Shown here: positions 1-61,518 of the stretch, piece after piece
How the letters are laid out: each line of letters begins with the position of its first letter
Position numbering within the stretch: position 1 is the stretch's first letter
From: a virus
Length of the DNA stretch: 64,000 bases
Virus record (IMG/VR): IMGVR_UViG_3300042560_001323
Location: 124,001 to 188,000 of that record
Strand: one strand, 5' to 3'
Notes under the pieces: generated by a model
What the model saw: the letters and a program-made list of their open reading frames with translations, nothing else
Told to the model about the DNA's origin: nothing
The model's database searches: none
Translations under genes and position numbers: made by a program

Positions 1-2264
1 GAAAGTTCTTGGAGAATGACCTGAAGCTCTTGTTCAGAGTTTTCCGTCACTTCATCCGTTTTATTATCAAAAGTGTTTTGATAATAACTTGTTTTCCAAC
101 CCACGGAATATGAGTAAAGCATGTCATGGGCCATTACGCTAACTGGAACTTCATTATCGGGATAGTTTTCCGGATTGTAAGACCAGTTCCCAGAAATTCC
201 CTGATCGATAAATTTCTGTAGAACTGCAACGGTATTAATATAACCTAAATTAGACTTCATATCCCAAAGAAGCGTATAATTATTCTTAAGAGTGTGATAT
301 TGTGGAACAATTTGCTTAAGTGGACCTTTTTTGGACTTTTTAATTGACAGCAGTTCACGAGGAGGTTCAATTCCATTAGTTGCATTAGAAACAACAGAAC
401 TACTCTCCGATGGCATCTGTGCAGATAGAGTTGAGTGCCTAAGGCCATTTTCAAGAATGGATTTTCGCAATTCTTCCCAATCATGTTGAAGAGGAACTGA
501 GGAAATTTCATCCACCTCTTTCTTGTAAGTATCTATGGGTAAAATTCCATCAGAATACTTAGTTCGCCCAAACCATTCACAGTGTCCTTTTTCTTTAGCG
601 AGTTGATTGGATGTCTTTAAAAGGTAGTATTGAAAAGATTCAGAAAGTTTATGCATCGCATCCCACGCCCCTTGTGAATCATAGTTAACTCCAAGTTTAG
701 CAAAATAGTGAGCAAGGCCAATAAAGCCAATTCCAAGCGATCTGCGACGCTTTGTAAAGTTTTCCGCCGCTTTGACGGGATACTTTTGATAATCAATAAT
801 TTCTTCTAGAGCACGAACTGCAAGATCACATAACTCTTCAATCTCTTCGTCTGGTTTTATTTTGCCAACATTAATAGCCGAAAGAATACAAGTGGCAATT
901 TCAGAAAAATTGTCATCATCAATATGTTGAATTGGGGTAGTGGGTTCCGTGATTTCTTGGCAGAGGTTCGACATCGTAATCTGGTCTTTATATGAACTAT
1001 GAGTGTTACAATGATCAATGTTCATAATATAAACCCTGCCAGTTTCAGCCCGTTCTTTAAGAAGATTTAGAATTAATTCTTGAGCTTTAACAGTCTTTTT
1101 AGGAATCGTCGGATCATTTTCATATTCAACGTAAATAGAATCAAATTCAGGCAGCCCAAAAGCATCATACAGCCTAGGTACATTATGTGGTGAGAAAAGG
1201 GTAATCTCTCCATTCTGAATGAATCTTTCGTAAAAAATTCTACTAAGTTGAATTGAATAATCGAGCCTGCGAACTCTATTGTCTTCAGTTCCCTTGTTAT
1301 TTTTTAATACTACGACATCCTCTATTTCTTGGTGCCAAATTGGAACATGAACCGTCGCAGAACCACCTCTAATGCCATTTTGCGTGCAACTTCTAACGGT
1401 TGCCTCAAATTTTTTAAAAAACGGAATAAGCCCAGTGTGTATGACCTCTCCTCCCCGGATTTTGCTGTTGATGCCGCGAATTCTTCCCCCGTTAATACCG
1501 ATTCCAGCGCGTTGAGCTACATATCTAAAAATCGCAGAATCGCTGGCCTCAATGCTATCAAGAGTATCGTCTACATCAACAAGAACACAACTTGCAAATT
1601 GACGAAGTGGAGTTCTAACCCCCGCCATAATAGGCGTAGGAATGTTAATTTTGTGTTTTGAAATTGCATCATAGTATTTTTTTACAAACGCCAGTCGGGT
1701 CTCTTTAGGATATTCAGAGAAGAGGGTTAGCGCAATCATAATATACATAAATTGCGGAGTTTCATATAATTTGCCGCTACTTCGGTCTTGTACCAAATAC
1801 TTGTCAACAACTTGACGAATACCGGCATAGGTAAAAATGAAATCCCTGTCGTGATTTATAAAATAATTTACCTTATCAATTTCTTCCTTTGAATACTTCT
1901 CATAAACTACGGGATCATAAAGATTCATTTGAACACAATGATTGATGTGCTCATCTAGATGGGGCAAATCAATTCTACCTCCATACACTTGCTTACGAAT
2001 AGAAAAAAGGAGCAATCTAGCCGCAACATATTGGTAATTTGGATGGTCCAAACTGATTAAATCTGAAGCAGACTTAACAAGAATCTGCTGAATCTCATCA
2101 GTTGTAATGCCAGCATAAAACTGAAGGCCAGAGTTCATCTCAATCTGCGAGGCAGATACATTGGCCAAACCAACGCAAGCACAATTAACCATATCGTGAA
2201 TTTTTTCTAGCATCAATGGCTCAATATTGCCATTGCGCTTAACTACAGTAATACCATTGCTCAT
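1..2264 (-). CDS. nrdA: Ribonucleotide reductase class I, large (alpha) subunit, C-terminus cut by window edge
   Basis: This subunit reduces ribonucleoside diphosphates to deoxy forms for phage DNA synthesis in the host cytoplasm, together with NrdB, which is not in this window. My translation starts MSNGITVVKRNG and gives an N-terminal ATP-cone-like region. It then shows the family core: FASCVLVDVDDTLDSI (active-site cysteine), a glycine-rich GIGINGGRIRG segment, and MSNLCQEI (N-x-C-x-E catalytic loop). Later come SLGIGFIGLAH and a C-terminal region with MPSESSS and NATNGIEPPR. The reading frame is open to base 1, so the terminal redox cysteines lie outside. The ATG overlaps the gp61 stop as ATGA, indicating translational coupling. 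No intron or intein interrupts the visible part. Confidence 0.96.
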   Translation of the reverse strand, partial: MSNGITVVKRNGNIEPLMLEKIHDMVNCACVGLANVSASQIEMNSGLQFYAGITTDEIQQILVKSASDLISLDHPNYQYVAARLLLFSIRKQVYGGRIDLPHLDEHINHCVQMNLYDPVVYEKYSKEEIDKVNYFINHDRDFIFTYAGIRQVVDKYLVQDRSSGKLYETPQFMYIMIALTLFSEYPKETRLAFVKKYYDAISKHKINIPTPIMAGVRTPLRQFASCVLVDVDDTLDSIEASDSAIFRYVAQRAGIGINGGRIRGINSKIRGGEVIHTGLIPFFKKFEATVRSCTQNGIRGGSATVHVPIWHQEIEDVVVLKNNKGTEDNRVRRLDYSIQLSRIFYERFIQNGEITLFSPHNVPRLYDAFGLPEFDSIYVEYENDPTIPKKTVKAQELILNLLKERAETGRVYIMNIDHCNTHSSYKDQITMSNLCQEITEPTTPIQHIDDDNFSEIATCILSAINVGKIKPDEEIEELCDLAVRALEEIIDYQKYPVKAAENFTKRRRSLGIGFIGLAHYFAKLGVNYDSQGAWDAMHKLSESFQYYLLKTSNQLAKEKGHCEWFGRTKYSDGILPIDTYKKEVDEISSVPLQHDWEELRKSILENGLRHSTLSAQMPSESSSVVSNATNGIEPPRELLSIKKSKKGPLKQIVPQYHTLKNNYTLLWDMKSNLGYINTVAVLQKFIDQGISGNWSYNPENYPDNEVPVSVMAHDMLYSYSVGWKTSYYQNTFDNKTDEVTENSEQELQVILQEL

Positions 2265-3235
2265 TTTTTCTTCCATTCGTTAAAGTTGAGATTTGCTAAA
2301 AGACCAGTATAGATGTTTTCTTTAATTATCTGGTTTACATCCAAACCAGAAAGAACCATTAGATTAACGTCCTTTTGTTTTACGTTTTTGGGCCAGATTA
2401 CTAATGGTAGATTTTTAACAATGGTTCTTTCCATTCTATCAACAATTTCTTTGTTTCTGGGTTCGTTATCGTAAATGTAAATTGGTTGTTTGATATTTAG
2501 TTTTGCTAGGTCTACATCCGCTCCACACATCGCAATGGAGTTATTGATAAAGTAAGAATCAAACGGACCCTCAAGAATGTAAACCGGTTCATTATTATCT
2601 ATGCTATCATAATTGTATACCTTTGGGGCATTTTCATCTAGCATAATCGTGATATATTTAATTGTAGATTTGCCTAGAGTTCTTCCCTGAATACCAATTA
2701 GCTCTTTATGGTAGTAAAGAGGAATGATTAGTCTTTCCTCCTCATAAAATAATGCCCGTCTATTAAACGTTGGCTTTAAGGTATTAACCCATTTTTTGAA
2801 CTCTTTAGCATAATAAAACTTTGTTGCATCTATGTTTCTAGATTCAAGATAAGACCTTGTTACTTCCTCTTCAGATGCTTTTGGTAGGTTTAGCCTTGCT
2901 CTAAAAACAGGCTTTGGATTTTCAAACTTAGGTGTAGTTGTTACAAAGTTCTTTCCAGTTAGACCCCTTTTGTATTTCTCTAGAATGAATTCTTCGTGAA
3001 GAGTTGGGTCTACTTGTTTTAGATAATTATTAAAAGAAACATTTATGCCACAGTTATGGCACTTATAGTTTGTGTTATTTCCTTTTTCATAAAAGTAACC
3101 ACGAGCTTTTGTTTTATTTTTCTGTGAATCTCCACAGATATTACATCTACAATTGTAGAGGCCGGGTTTTATCTTTTTAAATTTTTCTAAGCGTGATGAT
3201 AAGAGATTAATATAATAGTCGTCTATGGCATCCAT
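2261..3235 (-). CDS. 61: DNA primase, T4 gp61 type
   Basis: A 324-residue primase that makes RNA primers on the lagging strand with helicase gp41. The N-terminal zinc ribbon is visible as CNIC (residues 31-34) and CHNC (59-62). The TOPRIM-like half has EGPFDS near 222-227 and an acidic YDNEPRN near 255-261. Length is close to T4 gp61. It is coupled to nrdA by an ATGA overlap and abuts the stop of the preceding gene (TGA immediately followed by ATG). A consensus sigma70-like promoter sits just upstream, inside the end of that preceding gene, so gp61-nrdA can be expressed early on its own. Confidence 0.93.
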   Translation of the reverse strand: MDAIDDYYINLLSSRLEKFKKIKPGLYNCRCNICGDSQKNKTKARGYFYEKGNNTNYKCHNCGINVSFNNYLKQVDPTLHEEFILEKYKRGLTGKNFVTTTPKFENPKPVFRARLNLPKASEEEVTRSYLESRNIDATKFYYAKEFKKWVNTLKPTFNRRALFYEEERLIIPLYYHKELIGIQGRTLGKSTIKYITIMLDENAPKVYNYDSIDNNEPVYILEGPFDSYFINNSIAMCGADVDLAKLNIKQPIYIYDNEPRNKEIVDRMERTIVKNLPLVIWPKNVKQKDVNLMVLSGLDVNQIIKENIYTGLLANLNFNEWKKK

Positions 3236-3646
3236 TCATCCCTTGTCAAGGACCCTTATCATAGCACGTTCCGCCGGTTTTGTCAAGTCCCCCTTAAAAA
3301 GGCCAATGATTGGAGGAAGAGCAATGAATAGAAAATTCAGGGCCAAAACGATACCAATGCCAATATTGACCTTATCCTGCAGTCCTTTAATTACACCCAA
3401 AACTTCTTCTTTGTCGGTATTCATTTTTGTAGTGAGTCCCCTTATTCCCTCTTCTACCTTTCGGTTAATATCATCTCCTCTTTGTTGCTGCTGTTCGATT
3501 TTTACTTGATGGACCGCAAAAAGTTCACTGATTCTTACGTTTACCTTGCTAATTTCTGATATTGCTTCTCTTAGCGTTGCCATCTCTTTTTCACTATTTT
3601 CCTGACTCCTTTCAAGTAGAGCCAAACGAACAGATTCTTCTTGCAT
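3236..3646 (-). CDS. Coiled-coil protein with C-terminal membrane segment, unknown function
   Basis: A 136-residue protein I do not recognise. Residues 1-90 are charged and helical with heptad spacing, a likely coiled coil rich in Glu, Lys and Gln. Residues about 93-115 form one hydrophobic segment (IGIGIVLALNFLFIALPPIIGLF), so a C-tail-anchored membrane protein is likely. A GGAG ribosome site lies before the ATG, and a late-type TAAATA motif lies 53-59 bases upstream. The last 17 codons double as the gp61 promoter. Spanin-, holin- or tape-associated roles are possible but not shown. Confidence 0.72.
   Translation of the reverse strand: MQEESVRLALLERSQENSEKEMATLREAISEISKVNVRISELFAVHQVKIEQQQQRGDDINRKVEEGIRGLTTKMNTDKEEVLGVIKGLQDKVNIGIGIVLALNFLFIALPPIIGLFKGDLTKPAERAMIRVLDKG
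3258..3286 (-). promoter_or_regulatory. Early sigma70-type promoter for gp61-nrdA
   Basis: On the minus strand a perfect TTGACA (3281-3286) is followed after exactly 17 bases by TATGAT (3258-3263). The predicted start of transcription is about 16 bases before the gp61 ATG. The element lies within the last codons of the upstream 136-residue gene. The flank GGGGACTTGACAAAA resembles the two promoter cassettes at 25.5 and 28.9 kb. Confidence 0.8.
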
Positions 3647-3698
3647 TGTGTGCTCCGTGGAGATGTTTATCTCACAAAAATAACCATAAAGTTATAAC

Positions 3699-3705
3699 TA
3701 TTTAG
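3699..3705 (-). promoter_or_regulatory. Late promoter -10 motif (CTAAATA)
   Basis: CTAAATA on the minus strand, about 53 bases upstream of the gene starting at 3646. It resembles the T4 late -10 element TATAAATA recognised by gp55 and recurs before many late genes of this window. Confidence 0.5.
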
Positions 3706-3707
3706 TG

Positions 3708-3929
3708 TCAGAGTAACCCAGATGTGCGGAGCCATGCATCATAATGCCTCTTATAATTTTTACTTCTTCTATCAACTAAACCAGATTTTCTTTTCATTAA
3801 ACCCATTACTGGGTCATATCCGGCTCTTGGGTCTTTTGAGTCTGCCCCAAATCCACCACCTTCTCCAGCAGAGTTAGCGGTCATTAAATCTTCTCGTATA
3901 ATTACTATTACTCTATCTAGCGGTGTCAT
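3708..3929 (-). CDS. Small conserved phage protein, unknown function
   Basis: A 73-residue product starting MTPLDRVIVIIRED. The ATG at 3929 is preferred over an in-frame TTG further upstream. The N-terminus is hydrophobic and helical, the centre is glycine-rich (GEGGGFG), and the C-terminus is basic with aromatic residues (RRSKNYKRHYDAWLR). The start overlaps the end of the 129-residue gene upstream. The layout recalls short cyanophage virion-associated proteins that begin with a similar LDR-x-IIR helix, but that similarity is from memory and weak. Confidence 0.65.
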   Translation of the reverse strand: MTPLDRVIVIIREDLMTANSAGEGGGFGADSKDPRAGYDPVMGLMKRKSGLVDRRSKNYKRHYDAWLRTSGLL

Positions 3930-4302
3930 CTTCAATTCCAAGAAGTTCTCGTTTACAGTATTGGTCTTCTTCTAATTGATGAATGTAACCTTTTGGATAC
4001 TCTGGAAGACGGTTTAAAAATACAATAAATGTCTTAATCGTATTCCACATTTCAAAGTCGTTTTTAAATAATAACATTGGAGTCGTTGCCTCCCCAAAAA
4101 TGTTATAAAGTATCACAAAATGATTGAGTAGAAGATGAACTTTCAAATCCCCAGTCTTTTTATATTTTTTAAGAAGACGTTTAACATACTTAAAGTGATT
4201 TAAGTCTTTATCAAAGTCTTCTTTTGTTATTGCCTGGGGATTTTCATAATTTTTTATGGCAAAAAGAAGAAAGTTTTCTTCATTCAATTCATTAAATTGC
4301 AT
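3913..4302 (-). CDS. Conserved T4-like phage protein, DUF7207-like
   Basis: A 129-residue protein whose opening MQFNELNEENFLLFAIKNYE and the later block HLLLNHFVILYNIFGEA...MLLFK match a family found widely in marine T4-like phages, as I remember it. It is mostly helical, with no catalytic motif or membrane segment. It lies between two virion-related genes and overlaps the next gene by 17 bases. The function is unknown; a structural or assembly role is only suggested by position. Confidence 0.75.
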   Translation of the reverse strand: MQFNELNEENFLLFAIKNYENPQAITKEDFDKDLNHFKYVKRLLKKYKKTGDLKVHLLLNHFVILYNIFGEATTPMLLFKNDFEMWNTIKTFIVFLNRLPEYPKGYIHQLEEDQYCKRELLGIEDDTAR

Positions 4303-4309
4303 TTAGAGG

Positions 4310-5080
4310 TCAGGCAAAGATTGTAAGAGTTGTGGTGCCAATACCTACTCCAGAACCAAAAGCCCCCGCACCGCCAACATTGCGAATCATATCGGCAGTA
4401 AATGTGGAAGTTACTCCAACACCACCCGAGAAGTCTGTAATAACTCCAATAAAACCTCTACTGGTGTCAATCCTAAGAACTGAACCAATACCAGTTGCAG
4501 GAGCAGTGAATGCAAAGGCAACACGATTGGTAATTTGGCCATTATAACTCGTGAATGTTCTAAATGATTGACCATTAACAAAATTGGTTACGGTTGAACC
4601 GCTTGCAAATGAACGAGCAGTTGCAACAATTGGGGTGCCAGTTGGGGTGCCAGTAGCAGTAAATTGATTAATAAGCACCGTTGCACCAGCAGAAACGTTT
4701 ACAATTTCGTTAAAAACTAGATGCACAGAACCATTTCTACCGGTTCCAATACCAGAGGTGCCGCCAGCACCAATAGAAATAGGCGAGGATCGGTTTGGGT
4801 CTTCAAAAAATACCGCTACAGGAGTTGCGAGACCAAGGCCAGTAGTATTTGAACCAACACCAACGGTATTAAGACCTGCAACTGGTACTAGAACTTCATC
4901 ATAATAAGAAGTGGAAAGGCCAGATTGCTCGTTACTGCCATAGATACGATAAATCCACCCTCTTTCGTCCGCAAAACAGTTGTGTGGAGTTCTGTTTCTG
5001 TCTACATCGCGCAGAAACTTAGGAATACCATACCGGTTGTCAGCGGTTTCAGTAGTTGTTGAAATTCCCCAGAGAGCCAT
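4310..5080 (-). CDS. Putative virion structural protein (MALWG family)
   Basis: A 256-residue, beta-rich protein starting MALWGISTTTETADN, a start typical of cyanophage structural proteins encoded near baseplate genes. The N-terminal region mentions a conserved IPKFLRDVDRNRTPHNCFADERGWIYR block. The rest is Gly, Ser and Thr rich with repeated GIGT and GVG patterns, like the tail proteins in the second half of this window. A late -10 motif lies about 33 bases upstream. The exact virion location is not determined. Confidence 0.7.
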   Translation of the reverse strand: MALWGISTTTETADNRYGIPKFLRDVDRNRTPHNCFADERGWIYRIYGSNEQSGLSTSYYDEVLVPVAGLNTVGVGSNTTGLGLATPVAVFFEDPNRSSPISIGAGGTSGIGTGRNGSVHLVFNEIVNVSAGATVLINQFTATGTPTGTPIVATARSFASGSTVTNFVNGQSFRTFTSYNGQITNRVAFAFTAPATGIGSVLRIDTSRGFIGVITDFSGGVGVTSTFTADMIRNVGGAGAFGSGVGIGTTTLTIFA

Positions 5081-5112
5081 TAATATTACCTTAAATAGTA
5101 TTTGCTAAGAAT

Positions 5113-5119
5113 TATTTAT
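5113..5119 (-). promoter_or_regulatory. Late promoter -10 motif (ATAAATA)
   Basis: ATAAATA on the minus strand, 33 bases before the ATG at 5080. It lies directly after the terminator of the upstream small gene, so the MALWG gene appears to be its own late transcription unit. Confidence 0.55.
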
Positions 5120-5135
5120 GCGAATTTTTTATTAC

Positions 5136-5166
5136 AAAAAAGCGGAGAATTAATCTCCGCTTTTGT
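5136..5166 (-). terminator. Rho-independent terminator containing a stop codon in its loop
   Basis: Minus-strand AGCGGAGA / TCTCCGCT stem of 8 pairs with a 5-base loop, followed by TTTTTTGT. The TAA stop of the 57-residue gene falls at the loop, so the last codons are part of the hairpin. Confidence 0.85.
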
Positions 5167-5323
5167 TATTTTTAGTTGCTGCTATTAAAAAATTTCTGAC
5201 AAATTGATAGACATTGTTTGCCTTAATTTTCTTGTTCTGGCCAAGAAATTCGGAGAATGCAAAAAGCATCCCAAGAAGAATTGTAATACCAGAATTAAGA
5301 GCGAGACAAGCGGCTAATGACAT
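5150..5323 (-). CDS. 57-residue membrane protein, unknown function
   Basis: Starts MSLAACLALNSGITILLGML. One hydrophobic stretch covers residues 3-26 and is followed by a basic tail (QNKKIKAN ... KNNK). Its ATG overlaps the stop of the 52-residue gene as TGATG. The stop codon lies in the loop of a terminator hairpin. Size and single membrane span would suit a small holin-type or envelope protein, but nothing proves it. Confidence 0.68.
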   Translation of the reverse strand: MSLAACLALNSGITILLGMLFAFSEFLGQNKKIKANNVYQFVRNFLIAATKNNKSGD

Positions 5324-5481
5324 CAGATTTTGAGTTCGGAACGAACAAATTGAACTAGAGCGTTATCAATCTTGTTATCAGTAGAAGCAGCATAACGCTC
5401 AAGAAGAGCAACTACTAGGGCACGGGCTTCCTTGGAATCCCAGAACCACTTAACAACAACGCCTGCGAATTTAGTGAGCAT
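5323..5481 (-). CDS. 52-residue conserved small protein, unknown function
   Basis: Starts MLTKFAGVVVKWFWDSKEAR and continues as an amphipathic helix (ALVVALLERYAASTDNKIDNALVQFVRSELKI). A strong AAGGAG ribosome site precedes the ATG. It forms a two-gene unit with the following membrane protein through a one-base TGATG overlap. No known domain is visible. The hydrophobic N-terminus may associate with the membrane. Confidence 0.68.
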   Translation of the reverse strand: MLTKFAGVVVKWFWDSKEARALVVALLERYAASTDNKIDNALVQFVRSELKI

Positions 5482-5655
5482 AATTATATCTCCTTAGTTA
5501 GGGTATAAGTAGTAATAAAAACCAATAAAAGTAAAACCCTATTGATTTTCTAGACGCTTCATTGCAAATGCTAAATGATAATTTACATCATTTAGTCTTA
5601 ATTCCGCTCCACGCCGGTAATCGACGTACTCCGCCGATGAAACTATTTATGAAAG
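5482..5655 (-). other. Intergenic leader with late motif and an open frame lacking a start codon
   Basis: ATAAATA on the minus strand (5644-5650) lies at the upstream end. Between it and the 52-residue gene is a frame ending in the codons for AFAMKRLENQ and TAG (about 5540-5640). It has no ATG, GTG or TTG start that I can find. It may be a decayed small gene or an untranslated leader. Confidence 0.4.
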
Positions 5656-6105
5656 TTAGGTTCCACGAAGTCTAAGTTGTCTGGGTTTTGTTACTTTTGG
5701 TTTTGGCAACTTTGATGGTTTTGGTAATCTTTGAGCCTTAGGGATTAATTTTGAATCAAGAGATAATGGAATGTTTGGTTTTTTGGGTTGCATATATTTG
5801 AACTCAAGTTGTTTTGGTTCAATTCGTTTAGATGTTTGCTCTGGGGGTTTTGGTTTTGATGCTTCTCTTTCAGCCTCAACTTGCGCTCTTAAACGAGCCT
5901 GTAAACCAGCAGATACAGTTGTTGCTCCTTGAACTTTATTTCTATTAGTCTCTTCAGCTTCTCTACGTCTTTTTGCAACTGGATGCTCCGGTGGGGCCTT
6001 TTTTGATTCTGCACTTTGTAAATAACGTTCGGCATCTTTAATACCACGTTGACTCGCAAATGCTGGTCTAGGTGCCTCACCCAAAAACTGTTCAAATGTT
6101 TTCAT
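5656..6105 (-). CDS. Putative head-internal protein with capsid-targeting peptide
   Basis: A 149-residue, very basic and proline-rich protein. Its first ten residues, MKTFEQFLGE, followed by A, match the capsid-targeting peptide of T4 internal proteins (MKTYQEFIAE-A) and end in L-x-E, the gp21 prohead protease consensus. The remainder is low complexity and probably disordered (KPKPPEQ..., KPSKLPKPKVTKPRQLRLR), suited to packing with DNA. It overlaps the 415-residue gene upstream by ATGA. I infer that it is packaged in the prohead core and trimmed by gp21. Confidence 0.7.
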   Translation of the reverse strand: MKTFEQFLGEAPRPAFASQRGIKDAERYLQSAESKKAPPEHPVAKRRREAEETNRNKVQGATTVSAGLQARLRAQVEAEREASKPKPPEQTSKRIEPKQLEFKYMQPKKPNIPLSLDSKLIPKAQRLPKPSKLPKPKVTKPRQLRLRGT

Positions 6106-57451: not shown

Positions 57452-58227
57452 TAAACTATTCTCCAACCATTATTGTAAATAAATGTAAGCGAACCATAGT
57501 CAAAACCGATAACCGCTTTATCTTTTCCATCAACTGTATCTGCGCTTGTGGGAATTACTGTAATGTAACGATTTGCTCCTTTAGATGCTTGGCCTAGCTC
57601 ATCCTTGACAACATAACAAGTTCCATTTTCAACATTACCCGGAAGCGTTATCGTTACCGCTCCGGGATAGTTTACTCCAATATAGTAATCAGTTAACTGA
57701 ACCACGTGTGCTGCAGATGTTACAGAAACGGTTGCATAACGAATTCCACTGCTTCCTGGATCGGCACCCTCCCATTTTTTTGTTGTATCGTTGTAACGAA
57801 GAAACTTATTATTGACTTTAACTGAGTTTCTATCAACATCATCTAAAAATTCTAGGCGAGTTTCCCCGCCGCCACCTATAGTTGAAAGTTGCTGTTGTAT
57901 TCTTGCCAAAAATGACTGATAATGCTTTTGAAAAGCCTCAACAGTCATAAAGTTCTGATTAAGAGGAGTTAAAGGATCCTCATTTTTTGTATTAGTTGGC
58001 TCAGCGAGAAGTCCTAATGATTTCTCTATTAAAGATACTTCTTCTTTAATTGGCTCAATCTTTGGTTTCGATTTTATTGTTTTAGTCTTTCTTTTTGGTT
58101 TGGCTTCCTCCAGTAAAGGCTTAACAAAAAAATCATCAAAAGAAGTGGAAACTAATTCTTCTACTTCTTTTTGTTGTATTTTTTTTTCTTTACTTACAGC
58201 CTCAAAGAAATCTTTGAGTTCGCTCAT
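57451..58227 (-). CDS. Virion structural protein with helical N-terminus and beta tip, 258 residues
   Basis: Starts MSELKDFFEAVSKEKKIQQK. Residues 1-95 are charged and helical, with a Lys-rich linker (KPKRKTKTIKSKPKIEPIKEE), and a short coiled coil lies at 95-120. The C-terminal part has LDDVDRNSVKVNNKFLRYNDTTKKWEG, a short motif repeated in many phage fibres. GAVTITLPGNVENGTCYVVKDE and a DTVDGK loop follow, typical of fibre tips. It overlaps the 53-residue gene by ATGA. Confidence 0.72.
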   Translation of the reverse strand: MSELKDFFEAVSKEKKIQQKEVEELVSTSFDDFFVKPLLEEAKPKRKTKTIKSKPKIEPIKEEVSLIEKSLGLLAEPTNTKNEDPLTPLNQNFMTVEAFQKHYQSFLARIQQQLSTIGGGGETRLEFLDDVDRNSVKVNNKFLRYNDTTKKWEGADPGSSGIRYATVSVTSAAHVVQLTDYYIGVNYPGAVTITLPGNVENGTCYVVKDELGQASKGANRYITVIPTSADTVDGKDKAVIGFDYGSLTFIYNNGWRIV

Positions 58228-58385
58228 TCATCCTCTGAACCATTAAAGAGTGAAGTAGAAACTTCGGGAACTAGTGCATCAACTTTTTCCATTGCCTTAT
58301 CCTTAATGATATCCTTGATAAGGTCACTAATTTGTGCCGGTGATTCGTCTGCTGCAATCAAATCAAGTAGGTCTTGGTCTTCCAT
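58224..58385 (-). CDS. 53-residue prohead-core-like protein (gp67-like position)
   Basis: Starts MEDQDLLDLIAADESPAQIS and is acidic and helical: DLIKDIIKDKAMEKVDALVP ... TSLFNGSEDE. It lies directly after the portal gene, where T4 encodes prohead core gp67, and similar short proteins are found there in cyanophages. The gp67 link is by position and composition only. A late motif lies about 23 bases upstream. Confidence 0.65.
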   Translation of the reverse strand: MEDQDLLDLIAADESPAQISDLIKDIIKDKAMEKVDALVPEVSTSLFNGSEDE

Positions 58386-58407: not shown

Positions 58408-58414
58408 TATTTAG
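58408..58414 (-). promoter_or_regulatory. Late promoter -10 motif (CTAAATA)
   Basis: CTAAATAGAC on the minus strand, about 23 bases before the ATG at 58385. It overlaps the end of the portal gene. Confidence 0.5.
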
Positions 58415-61400
58415 ATTTCCCCGCCCTTAGGCATTTTGGGTTCTTTGGGTTTAATATCCGGTTCTACGGGAACTTTACCAGATTGACCTTTTATGTTGTT
58501 ACCCGCGCTAGAGGCTGCTGTGGGGCTCTGTGGGGTGGCTGCAGTGCCTTCTGGTGGGACCATACCCACTTCTATGGGTAAACCAGTTCGTGGGTCAACT
58601 GGTGCATTTGGGTCGGGAATAATACCGTCTTCAATCTCCTTTGCCATAATTTCATCTTGCTCAATAATCTCCTCATCAGTCTGACGAAGAATCTTGCGGC
58701 GCAAATAATCTTGTGAGAAATATCTTCCAACATAAGGCTCTGCCATAGATGCCATATTGAGCCTTTCGGTGAAGAGTTCAGATTCCTTAAGTTCAGCAAA
58801 GTGATTATCATATAGAAAGTCAAACTGAATATGTTCAGCCATTTTTTTCCAGTCTTCTGGCGTTACGATATTCTTCAGTAAAAGTTGGGTTCTTAGGAGA
58901 TCAATAAAAAGTTGAGAGAAGCGTTTGCGGAGTCTTCCCACAAATTTTGTGAACTTAACTTCATCTCTGAGGATTTCAGTTGAACGGCCAAGGTTAAATC
59001 CACTATCTCCGCCGATGCGAGTCTCTGGCACATTTAGTGCCTTATATAGATTACGTTTGAAGTAATCTAAATCGGACAATTCGCCAAGACTGCTATTTTT
59101 AGTATAAATGCCACAGGAAAGAGCAAAGGTGTGATAGTTATGAATAGACTCGTCTGAATCAATAGTTAATGTTCCAACTTCAATTTCATCAGTTAGATAT
59201 TCAATATTTGTAATAGTATGGTTATAAAATTTAGTTTCCATTCTAAAATGATGCCAGTTTTTGTAACCAAAATCTTTAACCATATTCCTAACAATATTTA
59301 CTGTAAACCCATTGGAGACGTTTACATTTGGGATAGACTTGTTAGCATTAAGTTCGCTGAAAAGATTCCGCATTGAAATATTTTCATTGAGCATATTGCA
59401 TACGTCAATTGCCTTAACTTGATGTGTGGTTTTTCCAATAACTATATTTTTTACGAACTCGAAATGTGAACGGGAAACTGCAACTTTTTGTCGCTCTTGA
59501 TGATTCTCTTTATATTGTCTTGCATAAACTGGGTCACTAAAGCGCATCTGCGAAGACTCTCTACTTCTGTTTGCAGCTTCTTCCTTCATTTCTTCAGTCC
59601 AACTATTTCGTATTTGTTGTCTGAACCATTCATTGTAATCTGGGTCTTTTAATTTCTCCTGAAGGGATTCTGATGCACCCTCAAGATTTTTTATAGAGGT
59701 TTCAATCTTCTTCTCTTTTTCATCCTCTGTGAGATTTTTAAAATGATTAATCTGACTGTTTTTTATGTTTAAACACCATTCTTCTCGTTTTTCGGGAGTA
59801 ATTGTTTCCCAGGTTCTTTTTCTTGCTTCAGAAGCCCGCTTCTTATATTCAAGGTAGAGTTCTGGATTAGTTTCTTTTAAGGATTCAAGAAACAGTTTCT
59901 TGATTTTATTGATTTCTTTTGAATGATAATGAATATGGTCAAAATGACCCATAAAGCATAGATTATCTGGGTTATTATTAAAACGGTTTAAATCAATGTG
60001 ATGAATGGTTTGTTTTGGTTCATTTTTGTCCTCATAGATGAAATCATTACAGTAAGAGCCTTTACAGCGATTTGCAATTAATCTATGGGTGAATTTCCAA
60101 GTTTTATCAACATTATCATAAATCATTTCATAATCTGAAGAACTCTTGCTGATTTTTTCCTTCTTCCTATGAAGAGGGATCATACTTTGTCCTACAGTCA
60201 AATCCTTTGCCTCAACAAAACCCAGGTCATAAATTGGGAACTTGTGGTCGTAAGTGCATACAAAGCTCTCATCGTTATCAAGAGTAATCTTTATAACCTT
60301 TGCACTCTTTTGTGTTACTCCGGCCCAAGAAATCAAACCCGGCGCAAACTCACCAGTTGAAGGATGACAAGAGTAAGTCCAAAGTTGCTCACCATTTTTC
60401 ATTTCGGACTCAATCTCTGAAATTGTCAATTCTCTTCCATCTAGTAGAGACACTTTTGTATCCATTGATAGACAGCCCGCCGGTAAGGTGGTAACCTCAG
60501 TTCCGCGACCACCTTCTCTACGGGGGAACCAAAAGTCTTCCATAAGACTCATAAACTTACGAGAAGTATCTACCTCACCGGTAAGGCTATTGTAGTTCAT
60601 CTTATTACGATACTTCATCATCTGCTCACGAAGGAACTGCTCAGCCTTGGGTTTTGGTAGATTACCTACGTCAATATAGAAAATTCTTTTTTCTGAACTT
60701 CTACTGAGACGATAAATGACTACACTATCTTCAATCATTCTAAGTTGATTGAGAACTTTGATTGCTTTATTAAGATATGAAAGGGATGTCCCCTTATTTC
60801 TATCAACCAAGCCCGAGGTACAATATGCGATGGATTCTTTTGTAAATTTGATTCCCTTTTCCGCACCAGCGGTCATACCTGCTGCACCTACTGGATATGT
60901 TTGTTTGGGACTATAAACAAAATATTCCTCAAGTTCTGGGAAAACTTGTTCATTTGGCCCTTGATCTCCATACATTTTTGGACCAAGAATATCTTTCTTT
61001 TGCTTTTTCGCTTGACGAACATAGCGAATTTTCATTGCATCCACATACCGAATATCTTGAATTCCAGCGTGTGGGTCTTTAATGTCAATTAGTTTATGAT
61101 AATAAAGCCGCCCATCAATATACCAGTTCCTAAAAATTTCGTGAGACTTTTTATCAAAATCGAGCATTTCAAGAATTGCTTTAAATTCCTGACGAATCGC
61201 ATTTTTAATTCCATCACTTGCATTAAGATTAGAAAGTTCAATCTCAATTGGAGAATCGTTTGTATCCGATACAATTGCCTCGTTTACAATATCTTCAATG
61301 GCGCTATCAACTTCGTGATGAAGCGCCATTTCCCGATAACGTTTGATTAAATCAAACTCTGTTCTATAAACACCTTCAACATCAACATAAGAACCAAAAA

Positions 61401-61518
61401 AGCCGGTTGTCAAATAATGATCGGAACCATCATCATTATTAGGGGGGACCGGCGAAATTATATTTTTAGATAATTTTTTATCGTTATCTTCAATAGAAAA
61501 TCCAAATAATCTAGCCAT
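58411..61518 (-). CDS. 20: Portal vertex protein gp20, interrupted by an in-frame intein
   Basis: A 1035-residue precursor. The extein portions (1-348 and 809-1035) make a 575-residue portal that forms the dodecameric DNA channel and nucleates the prohead. Markers are YRTEFDLIKRYREMALHHEVDSAIEDIVNEAI, RIFYIDVGNLPKPKAEQFLREQM and PRREGGRGTEVTTLPAG. After the insert come LGELSDLDYFKRNLYKALNVPETR and VGRLRKRFSQLFIDLL. The intein lies exactly between TTLPAG and SSLGEL, where other gp20 proteins read on without a gap. A late motif lies about 26 bases upstream. Confidence 0.97.
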   Translation of the reverse strand: MARLFGFSIEDNDKKLSKNIISPVPPNNDDGSDHYLTTGFFGSYVDVEGVYRTEFDLIKRYREMALHHEVDSAIEDIVNEAIVSDTNDSPIEIELSNLNASDGIKNAIRQEFKAILEMLDFDKKSHEIFRNWYIDGRLYYHKLIDIKDPHAGIQDIRYVDAMKIRYVRQAKKQKKDILGPKMYGDQGPNEQVFPELEEYFVYSPKQTYPVGAAGMTAGAEKGIKFTKESIAYCTSGLVDRNKGTSLSYLNKAIKVLNQLRMIEDSVVIYRLSRSSEKRIFYIDVGNLPKPKAEQFLREQMMKYRNKMNYNSLTGEVDTSRKFMSLMEDFWFPRREGGRGTEVTTLPAGCLSMDTKVSLLDGRELTISEIESEMKNGEQLWTYSCHPSTGEFAPGLISWAGVTQKSAKVIKITLDNDESFVCTYDHKFPIYDLGFVEAKDLTVGQSMIPLHRKKEKISKSSSDYEMIYDNVDKTWKFTHRLIANRCKGSYCNDFIYEDKNEPKQTIHHIDLNRFNNNPDNLCFMGHFDHIHYHSKEINKIKKLFLESLKETNPELYLEYKKRASEARKRTWETITPEKREEWCLNIKNSQINHFKNLTEDEKEKKIETSIKNLEGASESLQEKLKDPDYNEWFRQQIRNSWTEEMKEEAANRSRESSQMRFSDPVYARQYKENHQERQKVAVSRSHFEFVKNIVIGKTTHQVKAIDVCNMLNENISMRNLFSELNANKSIPNVNVSNGFTVNIVRNMVKDFGYKNWHHFRMETKFYNHTITNIEYLTDEIEVGTLTIDSDESIHNYHTFALSCGIYTKNSSLGELSDLDYFKRNLYKALNVPETRIGGDSGFNLGRSTEILRDEVKFTKFVGRLRKRFSQLFIDLLRTQLLLKNIVTPEDWKKMAEHIQFDFLYDNHFAELKESELFTERLNMASMAEPYVGRYFSQDYLRRKILRQTDEEIIEQDEIMAKEIEDGIIPDPNAPVDPRTGLPIEVGMVPPEGTAATPQSPTAASSAGNNIKGQSGKVPVEPDIKPKEPKMPKGGEI
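59095..60474 (-). mobile_element. Intein with HNH homing endonuclease inside gp20
   Basis: 460 codons. Block A begins with Cys1 (CLSMDTKVSLLDGRELTISE). Block B is CTYDHKFPIYDLGFVEAKDL, with the T-x-x-H motif. The central HNH endonuclease has HHIDLNRFNNNPDNLCFMGHFDHIHYH and is followed by repeated basic helices (NUMOD-like: RKRTWETITPEKREEW ...). Block F/G is VGTLTIDSDESIHNYHTFALSCGIYTKN, ending in Asn before Ser+1. The penultimate residue is Lys instead of the usual His. Protein splicing is predicted to restore the portal. Confidence 0.93.

What the first reader, a model, noticed from the sequence alone, without database searches (positions are those of the whole stretch)
59095..60474. HNH-containing intein in the portal protein gp20
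The portal frame is interrupted by 460 codons with Cys1, a T-x-x-H block B, an HNH nuclease and an Asn-Ser C-terminal junction, at the conserved TTLPAG/LGEL site. gp20 is a popular cyanophage marker gene, so an intein here would break marker PCR designs. The penultimate residue is Lys, not His, which is known in some inteins but may alter splicing speed. The splice junction leaves SS where other gp20 proteins usually have QN.
Basis: partly seen in the sequence, partly recalled or inferred. Interest (0 to 1): 0.87.

Follow-up and report, generated by a model that had tools for sequence, protein, structure and literature searches.

The report
Self-splicing intein in cyanophage portal protein
The portal gene (g20) of this uncultured T4-like cyanophage carries a genuine intein, a mobile protein segment that cuts itself out after translation; it belongs to a widespread, apparently undescribed intein family that keeps invading one domain of this gene and lies inside the standard g20 PCR marker.

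Summary
ORF 58411-61518(-) is a T4-type portal gp20 (1035 aa) interrupted by 460 codons (59095-60474). The insert has Cys1, block B TxxH, an HNH endonuclease, block F His and terminal Asn followed by Ser; removal leaves a 575-aa portal. AlphaFold gives a HINT fold matching solved inteins. The closest relatives (97% identical) have the site empty; others of the same lineage carry ~148-aa mini-inteins lacking the nuclease. The splicing domain is under purifying selection (dN/dS about 0.05-0.12). Relatives are numerous in IMG/VR: 279 loci; all 80 retrieved, plus one genome contig, are portal genes. I catalogued 87 distinct complete inteins at eight junctions, all in the portal clip domain, up to three per gene. 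Penultimate Lys is the family norm (58/87; His 3/87), not a defect. The window's site falls in the T4 channel loop, so an unspliced dodecamer should be unable to package DNA. The intein lengthens the CPS1.1/CPS8.1 marker amplicon from 591 to 1971 bp. No GenBank gp20 surveyed carries this family at this site; portal inteins as such are known in mycobacteriophages. Splicing and homing are inferred, not shown. New member of a known kind, in an unusually rich family.

The parts
60475..61518 (-). gp20 N-extein, aa 1-348, ending TTLPAG
   Evidence: Portal_T4 match; 100% aa identity to the empty-site relatives L242/L243 over aa 1-323
59095..60474 (-). intein, 460 aa, Cys1 to Asn460
60181..60474 (-). 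N-terminal splicing half (blocks A and B), intein residues 1-98; T74 60253-60255, H77 60244-60246
   Evidence: TIGR01445 over cut-off; AlphaFold strands at pLDDT about 90; invariant C1, T74, H77
59923..60006 (-). HNH motif HH...N...H, intein residues 157-184
   Evidence: HNH_3; the two His of HH and H180 invariant in 13 of 13 full-length members
59221..60180 (-). homing endonuclease region, intein residues 99-418 (HNH plus helical, probably DNA-binding, part); absent from the mini-inteins
   Evidence: alignment with mini-inteins L008, L016, L034, L036; largely helical in the model
59095..59220 (-). C-terminal splicing half (blocks F and G), residues 419-460; H448 59131-59133, K459 59098-59100, N460 59095-59097
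59092..59094 (-). +1 Ser of the C-extein
   Evidence: Ser, Thr or Cys at +1 in 87 of 87 distinct portal inteins
58411..59094 (-). gp20 C-extein, aa 809-1035, and stop codon
   Evidence: T4 portal second piece, aa 810-971
60665..60689 (-). CPS1.1 marker primer site, 2 mismatches
   Evidence: primer from PMC2657995
58719..58740 (+). CPS8.1 marker primer site, 2 mismatches; amplicon 1971 bp with intein, 591 bp without
   Evidence: primer from PMC2657995

Best explanation
It is a class 1 cis-splicing intein with an embedded HNH homing endonuclease, inserted in the channel loop of gp20 between residues equivalent to T4 A353 and D354. Inferred splicing steps: the 1035-aa precursor folds its HINT domain; Cys1, assisted by T74-x-x-H77, makes an N-to-S acyl shift; Ser+1 takes over the N-extein by transesterification; Asn460 cyclises, with Lys459 in place of the usual His and with H448 of block F; an O-to-N shift leaves TTLPAG-SSLGEL, a 575-aa portal able to form the packaging dodecamer. 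Inferred spread: the HNH enzyme cuts intein-less g20 in mixed infection and repair copies the intein in; loss of the nuclease yields mini-inteins. Shown here: anatomy, predicted fold, conservation, purifying selection, and empty, mini and full alleles within one phage lineage. Not shown: splicing, nuclease activity, homing.
For: Catalytic residues invariant in the 19-member alignment (C1, T74, H77, H448, N460); 87 of 87 distinct portal inteins begin with C, end with N and are followed by S, T or C (the start and end were located with profiles made from A1). HINT fold: Foldseek to Ssp DnaB intein 1mi8, prob 1.00, E 3e-5, 101 columns, rmsd 2.5 A, and about 30 further intein entries at E below 1e-3. 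Empty site in L242/L243, 97% identical gp20; second pair L250 (mini) and L252/L253 (empty), extein dS about 0.04-0.07. Splice-domain dN/dS 0.05-0.12 against L016, L034, L036 and L247; HEN region 0.06-0.22 in most other informative pairs of the family. HNH residues conserved in 13 of 13. Site in the T4 channel loop 350-359, a constriction of about 28 A (PMC4493910; mapping).
Against: No biochemical or proteomic data. Pfam Intein_splicing and HNH_3 are below their gathering scores. The model has pTM 0.50 and a poor stretch at residues 132-155. The window intein is the only HEN-bearing member in a small clade of mini-inteins, so its endonuclease may be in decline, and no strong co-conversion gradient is visible at its flanks.
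Confidence: 0.93

Rival explanations
1. Splicing-competent intein whose HNH nuclease is already inactive; persistence is vertical, with occasional transfer by recombination of flanks, and it is on the way to the mini-inteins of its sisters. (A variant of the main explanation that differs in the spread step only; its confidence is not exclusive of the main one.)
For: All of its closest intein relatives are mini-inteins. Window versus L244/L245/L246 extein and intein dS are alike (0.52-0.75 vs 0.44-0.86), as expected for co-inheritance. L019 shows a partial HEN deletion that keeps HNH.
Against: HNH residues intact in the window; HEN-region dN/dS well below 1 in most other family pairs; window versus L247 intein dS 0.70 is about half the extein dS 1.3-1.4, hinting at horizontal movement.
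Confidence: 0.4
2. Adapted, conditional intein: splicing of 12 portal copies gates head assembly or packaging, and the family is retained for a regulatory benefit.
For: Eight junctions all in the clip domain and channel loop; conserved non-His penultimate residue; in this genome gp17, the portal's packaging partner, also appears to be broken by a split intein.
Against: Near-identical phages lack the intein; sporadic presence fits a selfish element; no conditional feature was identified.
Confidence: 0.1
3. Non-splicing HINT domain retained in the portal, or a dead intein that breaks gp20.
For: No splicing assay exists; penultimate residue is Lys.
Against: Invariant splice residues, purifying selection, and the position in a channel loop where 12 retained 460-aa domains would obstruct DNA; Lys typical of the family.
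Confidence: 0.04
4. Assembly chimera.
For: The record is a metagenomic contig.
Against: 30 other contigs carry in-frame inteins at the same codon, three with 94-97% identical exteins.
Confidence: 0.01

Closest known systems
Mycobacteriophage cluster C1 portal intein (PORT; PMC5050341)
   Same: Intein in a phage portal gene
   Different: Reported there in cluster C1 mycobacteriophages, not in T4-type gp20; residue-level site comparison not made here
Mycobacteriophage terminase inteins (PMC5050341)
   Same: Several insertion sites in one DNA-packaging function
   Different: Seven unique sites in the terminase ATPase domain; here eight junctions in the portal clip domain, occupied by one recognisable homologous family
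Haloarchaeal MCM inteins a-d (PMC10643990)
   Same: Four neighbouring insertion sites in one gene
   Different: Cellular replicative helicase; here up to three inteins in one viral structural gene, 12-13 residues apart
NrdJ-1 intein (PDB 8ubs) and Ssp DnaB intein (1mi8)
   Same: Closest solved structures by sequence profile (E 2.5e-7) and by fold
   Different: Different hosts; 8ubs is a split-intein fusion of 151 residues and 1mi8 a 141-residue chain, both too short to hold an endonuclease of this size
NCBIfam NF052663 intein-containing RtcB family protein
   Same: Best curated match over the intein part (E 9.6e-23)
   Different: 80.8 bits against a cut-off of 1050; host protein is RtcB-like, not a portal
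Huge phage LR756508.1 portal-like ORF
   Same: Nearest GenBank relative (45% over 195 aa to family member L213) lies in a portal-like ORF that appears to hold three inteins
   Different: Distant jumbo-phage portal, insertion further downstream, unannotated record

Membership tests
Intein (class 1) | In-frame insertion in a conserved host protein with intein-free homologues | tested here: met
   L242/L243 97% identical without it; 64 of 80 nearest gp20 empty
Intein (class 1) | Cys/Ser/Thr at position 1 | tested here: met
   C1 here and in 87 of 87 family members
Intein (class 1) | Block B TxxH | tested here: met
   T74 and H77 invariant
Intein (class 1) | C-terminal Asn followed by Ser/Thr/Cys | tested here: met
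   87 of 87; +1 S 83, T 3, C 1
Intein (class 1) | Penultimate His (common, not obligatory) | tested here: not met
   Lys here; family K 58, C 11, F 5, H 3 of 87. Not a defining requirement: non-His penultimate residues are known in active inteins such as the cyanobacterial DnaE ones (general knowledge, not tested)
Intein (class 1) | HINT fold | tested here: met
   predicted model; Foldseek to 1mi8 and other inteins, prob 1.00
Intein (class 1) | Protein splicing activity | not testable with these tools
   needs expression
HNH homing endonuclease | HNH catalytic motif inside the intein | tested here: met
   HNH_3 E 3e-4 (below gathering score); motif His conserved in 13 of 13 full-length members
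HNH homing endonuclease | Cleaves the intein-less allele and promotes homing | not testable with these tools
   needs cleavage and co-infection assays
T4-type portal gp20 | Portal_T4 homology on both sides of the insert | tested here: met
Mycobacteriophage C1 portal intein | Homologous host protein and same insertion site | not tested
   sequence not fetched; the tblastn search of phages with the window intein returned no mycobacteriophage

The most novel reading that the evidence does not exclude
A portal-specialised lineage of inteins has radiated within one gene: one homologous family occupies at least eight neighbouring junctions in the gp20 clip domain and channel loop, with up to three per gene separated by 12-13-residue extein pieces, by occasional jumps between adjacent sites; its mostly non-His penultimate residue and its placement in the packaging motor would make splicing a natural timer for portal maturation.
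Probability: 0.25. Interest if true: 0.75.

Novelty: new member of a known kind. Interest (0 to 1): 0.55.

Why it matters
gp20 (g20) is the classic diversity marker for cyanomyophages. The intein sits between the standard primers, and all eight family junctions lie in the same stretch, so amplicon surveys that expect about 592 bp should tend to miss intein-bearing phages. The portal is also an unusual, essential, dodecameric host for protein splicing, which gives natural mini-inteins, empty alleles and multi-intein genes for testing splicing and homing in a virion motor. A compact family of natural 142-160-aa mini-inteins, most with Lys before the terminal Asn, is also of interest to intein engineers.

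Tried and rejected
A single-sequence search of viral contigs with the window intein found nothing, because its peptide patterns were too specific; a site-specific DNA pattern and an alignment-based search worked. Chimera or assembly error: rejected. Co-conversion tract at the junction judged from L242: 3 and 6 mismatches in the first 60 bases on either side, no clear gradient. Recurrence of TnpB inside broken gp17: only the window genome shows it; one relative (L417) has TnpB beside gp17. psbA as proof of cyanophage identity: only a first-exon fragment was found, though the best portal hits are cyanophages. My dS values are simple Nei-Gojobori estimates and near saturation above about 1.

Full report
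What is there. The minus-strand ORF 58411-61518 encodes 1035 aa in one open frame. Its two ends are a T4-type portal protein (PF07230 1.1e-168; PHROG 213; T4 gp20 structures 6uzc and 3ja7), best matched by Synechococcus phages B23, S-SCSM1 and S-SM2 at about 70% identity. The two pieces are separated by residues 349-808, which match the NCBIfam intein N-terminal model over its cut-off, Pfam Intein_splicing (sub-threshold) and HNH families. The record is a 243-kb IMG/VR virus contig.

Allelic evidence. A pattern for E[VI]TTLP[AG]GC in IMG/VR found 31 contigs; 30 are gp20 genes with an in-frame intein at this codon. Querying with the N-extein alone returned the 80 nearest portals: 64 have an empty site, 14 an intein, 2 end too early. 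The very nearest, L242 and L243, are 97% identical over the whole gp20 (N-extein dN 0.001, dS 0.12) and read TTLPAG-TALGEL with nothing inserted. L244-L246, of the same lineage (94-98% over the query), carry 148-150-aa mini-inteins that are 84-87% identical to the window's splicing domain. L250 (mini) and L252/L253 (empty) form a second near-identical pair. The element is therefore polymorphic within one phage lineage.

Selection and inheritance. Nei-Gojobori dN/dS of the splicing domain is 0.049-0.121 between the window and L034, L036, L016 and L247. Between the window and L244-L246, intein and extein dS are similar (co-inheritance); between the window and L247 the intein dS (0.70) is about half the extein dS (1.27-1.44), which suggests movement between lineages. 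The estimates rest on about 140 codons and are rough.

Family. With the 19-member alignment A1, 279 of 300 pattern stretches in IMG/VR encode relatives; the best 80 were kept and all are in portal ORFs, as is the single genome-contig hit. From these and the other loci I extracted 128 complete inteins, 87 distinct. Mapped on the window's spliced gp20, junctions fall after residues 311, 312 (one case, mapping uncertain), 323, 332, 334, 336, 348 and 349. With the ungapped offset of 5 to T4 gp20 these are T4 316-354, all in the clip domain (279-358) and, for the last two, the channel loop (350-359), a constriction of about 28 A (PMC4493910). L021 has three inteins separated by extein pieces of 13 and 12 residues; L171, L187, L220, L222, L227, L235, L238 and L239 have two complete ones. 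All 87 start with Cys, end with Asn and have Ser, Thr or Cys at +1; the penultimate residue is Lys in 58 and His in 3. Sizes run from 142 to 525 aa. On a quick tree of the splicing domain (142 columns, many weak forks), site labels need 9 changes against a minimum of 6 and 28.7 in shuffles: each site mostly keeps its own lineage, with a few possible jumps. The window intein groups with eleven mini-inteins as the only one there with an endonuclease; its HEN aligns with other full-length members (51% identity overall to L022), so retention with repeated loss in its sisters is at least as likely as regain.

Structure. AlphaFold (mean pLDDT 80.6, pTM 0.50; splice halves mostly 85-95) gives a beta-rich core with a long helical insertion. 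Foldseek against the PDB returns inteins for nearly all top matches (1mi8, 2imz, 6frg, 1zde and others); against predicted viral proteins it returns intein-bearing terminases, polymerases and the SP-15 Hint protein, and no named portal among the 50 listed.

Mechanism. I take the standard class 1 pathway as most likely. Because the junction lies in the channel loop of a dodecamer, an unspliced precursor should block DNA passage, so efficient splicing is probably essential; this is inference. The HNH motif is intact, so homing into empty alleles is plausible but untested, and a decayed nuclease is a serious rival.

Marker claim. The published primers CPS1.1 and CPS8.1 (PMC2657995) match the window with two mismatches each at 60665-60689 and 58719-58740: 1971 bp with the intein, 591 without, against the nominal ~592 bp for CPS1/CPS8. 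That paper scored the absence of a product of the expected size as negative.

Known or new. Portal inteins are recorded for mycobacteriophage cluster C1 (PMC5050341). Searching held papers for intein with gp20/cyanophage, portal/myovirus and portal vertex/cyanomyovirus terms found no description of a gp20 intein; the library is open-access only. In 50,697 phage records, none of the 2,506 with a match covered 80% of the intein-bearing query, and intein queries hit six records or fewer. The nearest is huge phage LR756508.1, whose matched ORF also looks like a portal and appears to hold three inteins. I therefore file this as a new member of a known kind, from a family that seems undescribed.

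Noticed in passing
L162 (G000:C1:186000-197000): 5706-6080(-), 4308-5504(-), 2447-4213(-); just outside the window: gp17 terminase appears fractured at its Walker A motif by a split intein (CPRQVGK|CFDIN... and ...IVSHN|STAVV) with a TnpB (OrfB_IS605 plus Cas12f1-like TNB) gene between the halves. In relative L327 the ORF before the same C-half looks like a Vsr-like endonuclease (judged by eye), the known fractured-gene layout; L325 (97% gp17) has a contiguous intein starting with Pro at the same site. An RNA-guided nuclease in the place of a homing endonuclease may be new.
   Followed up: partly
L040 / G000:C1 about 57500-58314(-): A nicotinamide phosphoribosyltransferase-like ORF (771 aa) seems to carry an intein (CLDSKSQILTPSGWKF ... 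IMVTGN|SGHPPQ).
   Followed up: no
L323 (G000:C1:225500-229500), 1821-2354(-): psbA first exon (about 62 aa) preceded by a PhotoRC-II RNA and followed by a group I intron; no further psbA match was found in the contig.
   Followed up: partly
L004 (LR756508.1:144734-151477), ORF from 1026: Huge-phage portal-like ORF of 1387 aa that appears to contain three inteins, two short and one HNH-bearing, in an unannotated GenBank record.
   Followed up: partly
L019 (L031 and L032 hold the same intein): 354-aa intein with HNH intact but the C-terminal part of the endonuclease region deleted: an apparent intermediate of HEN decay.
   Followed up: no
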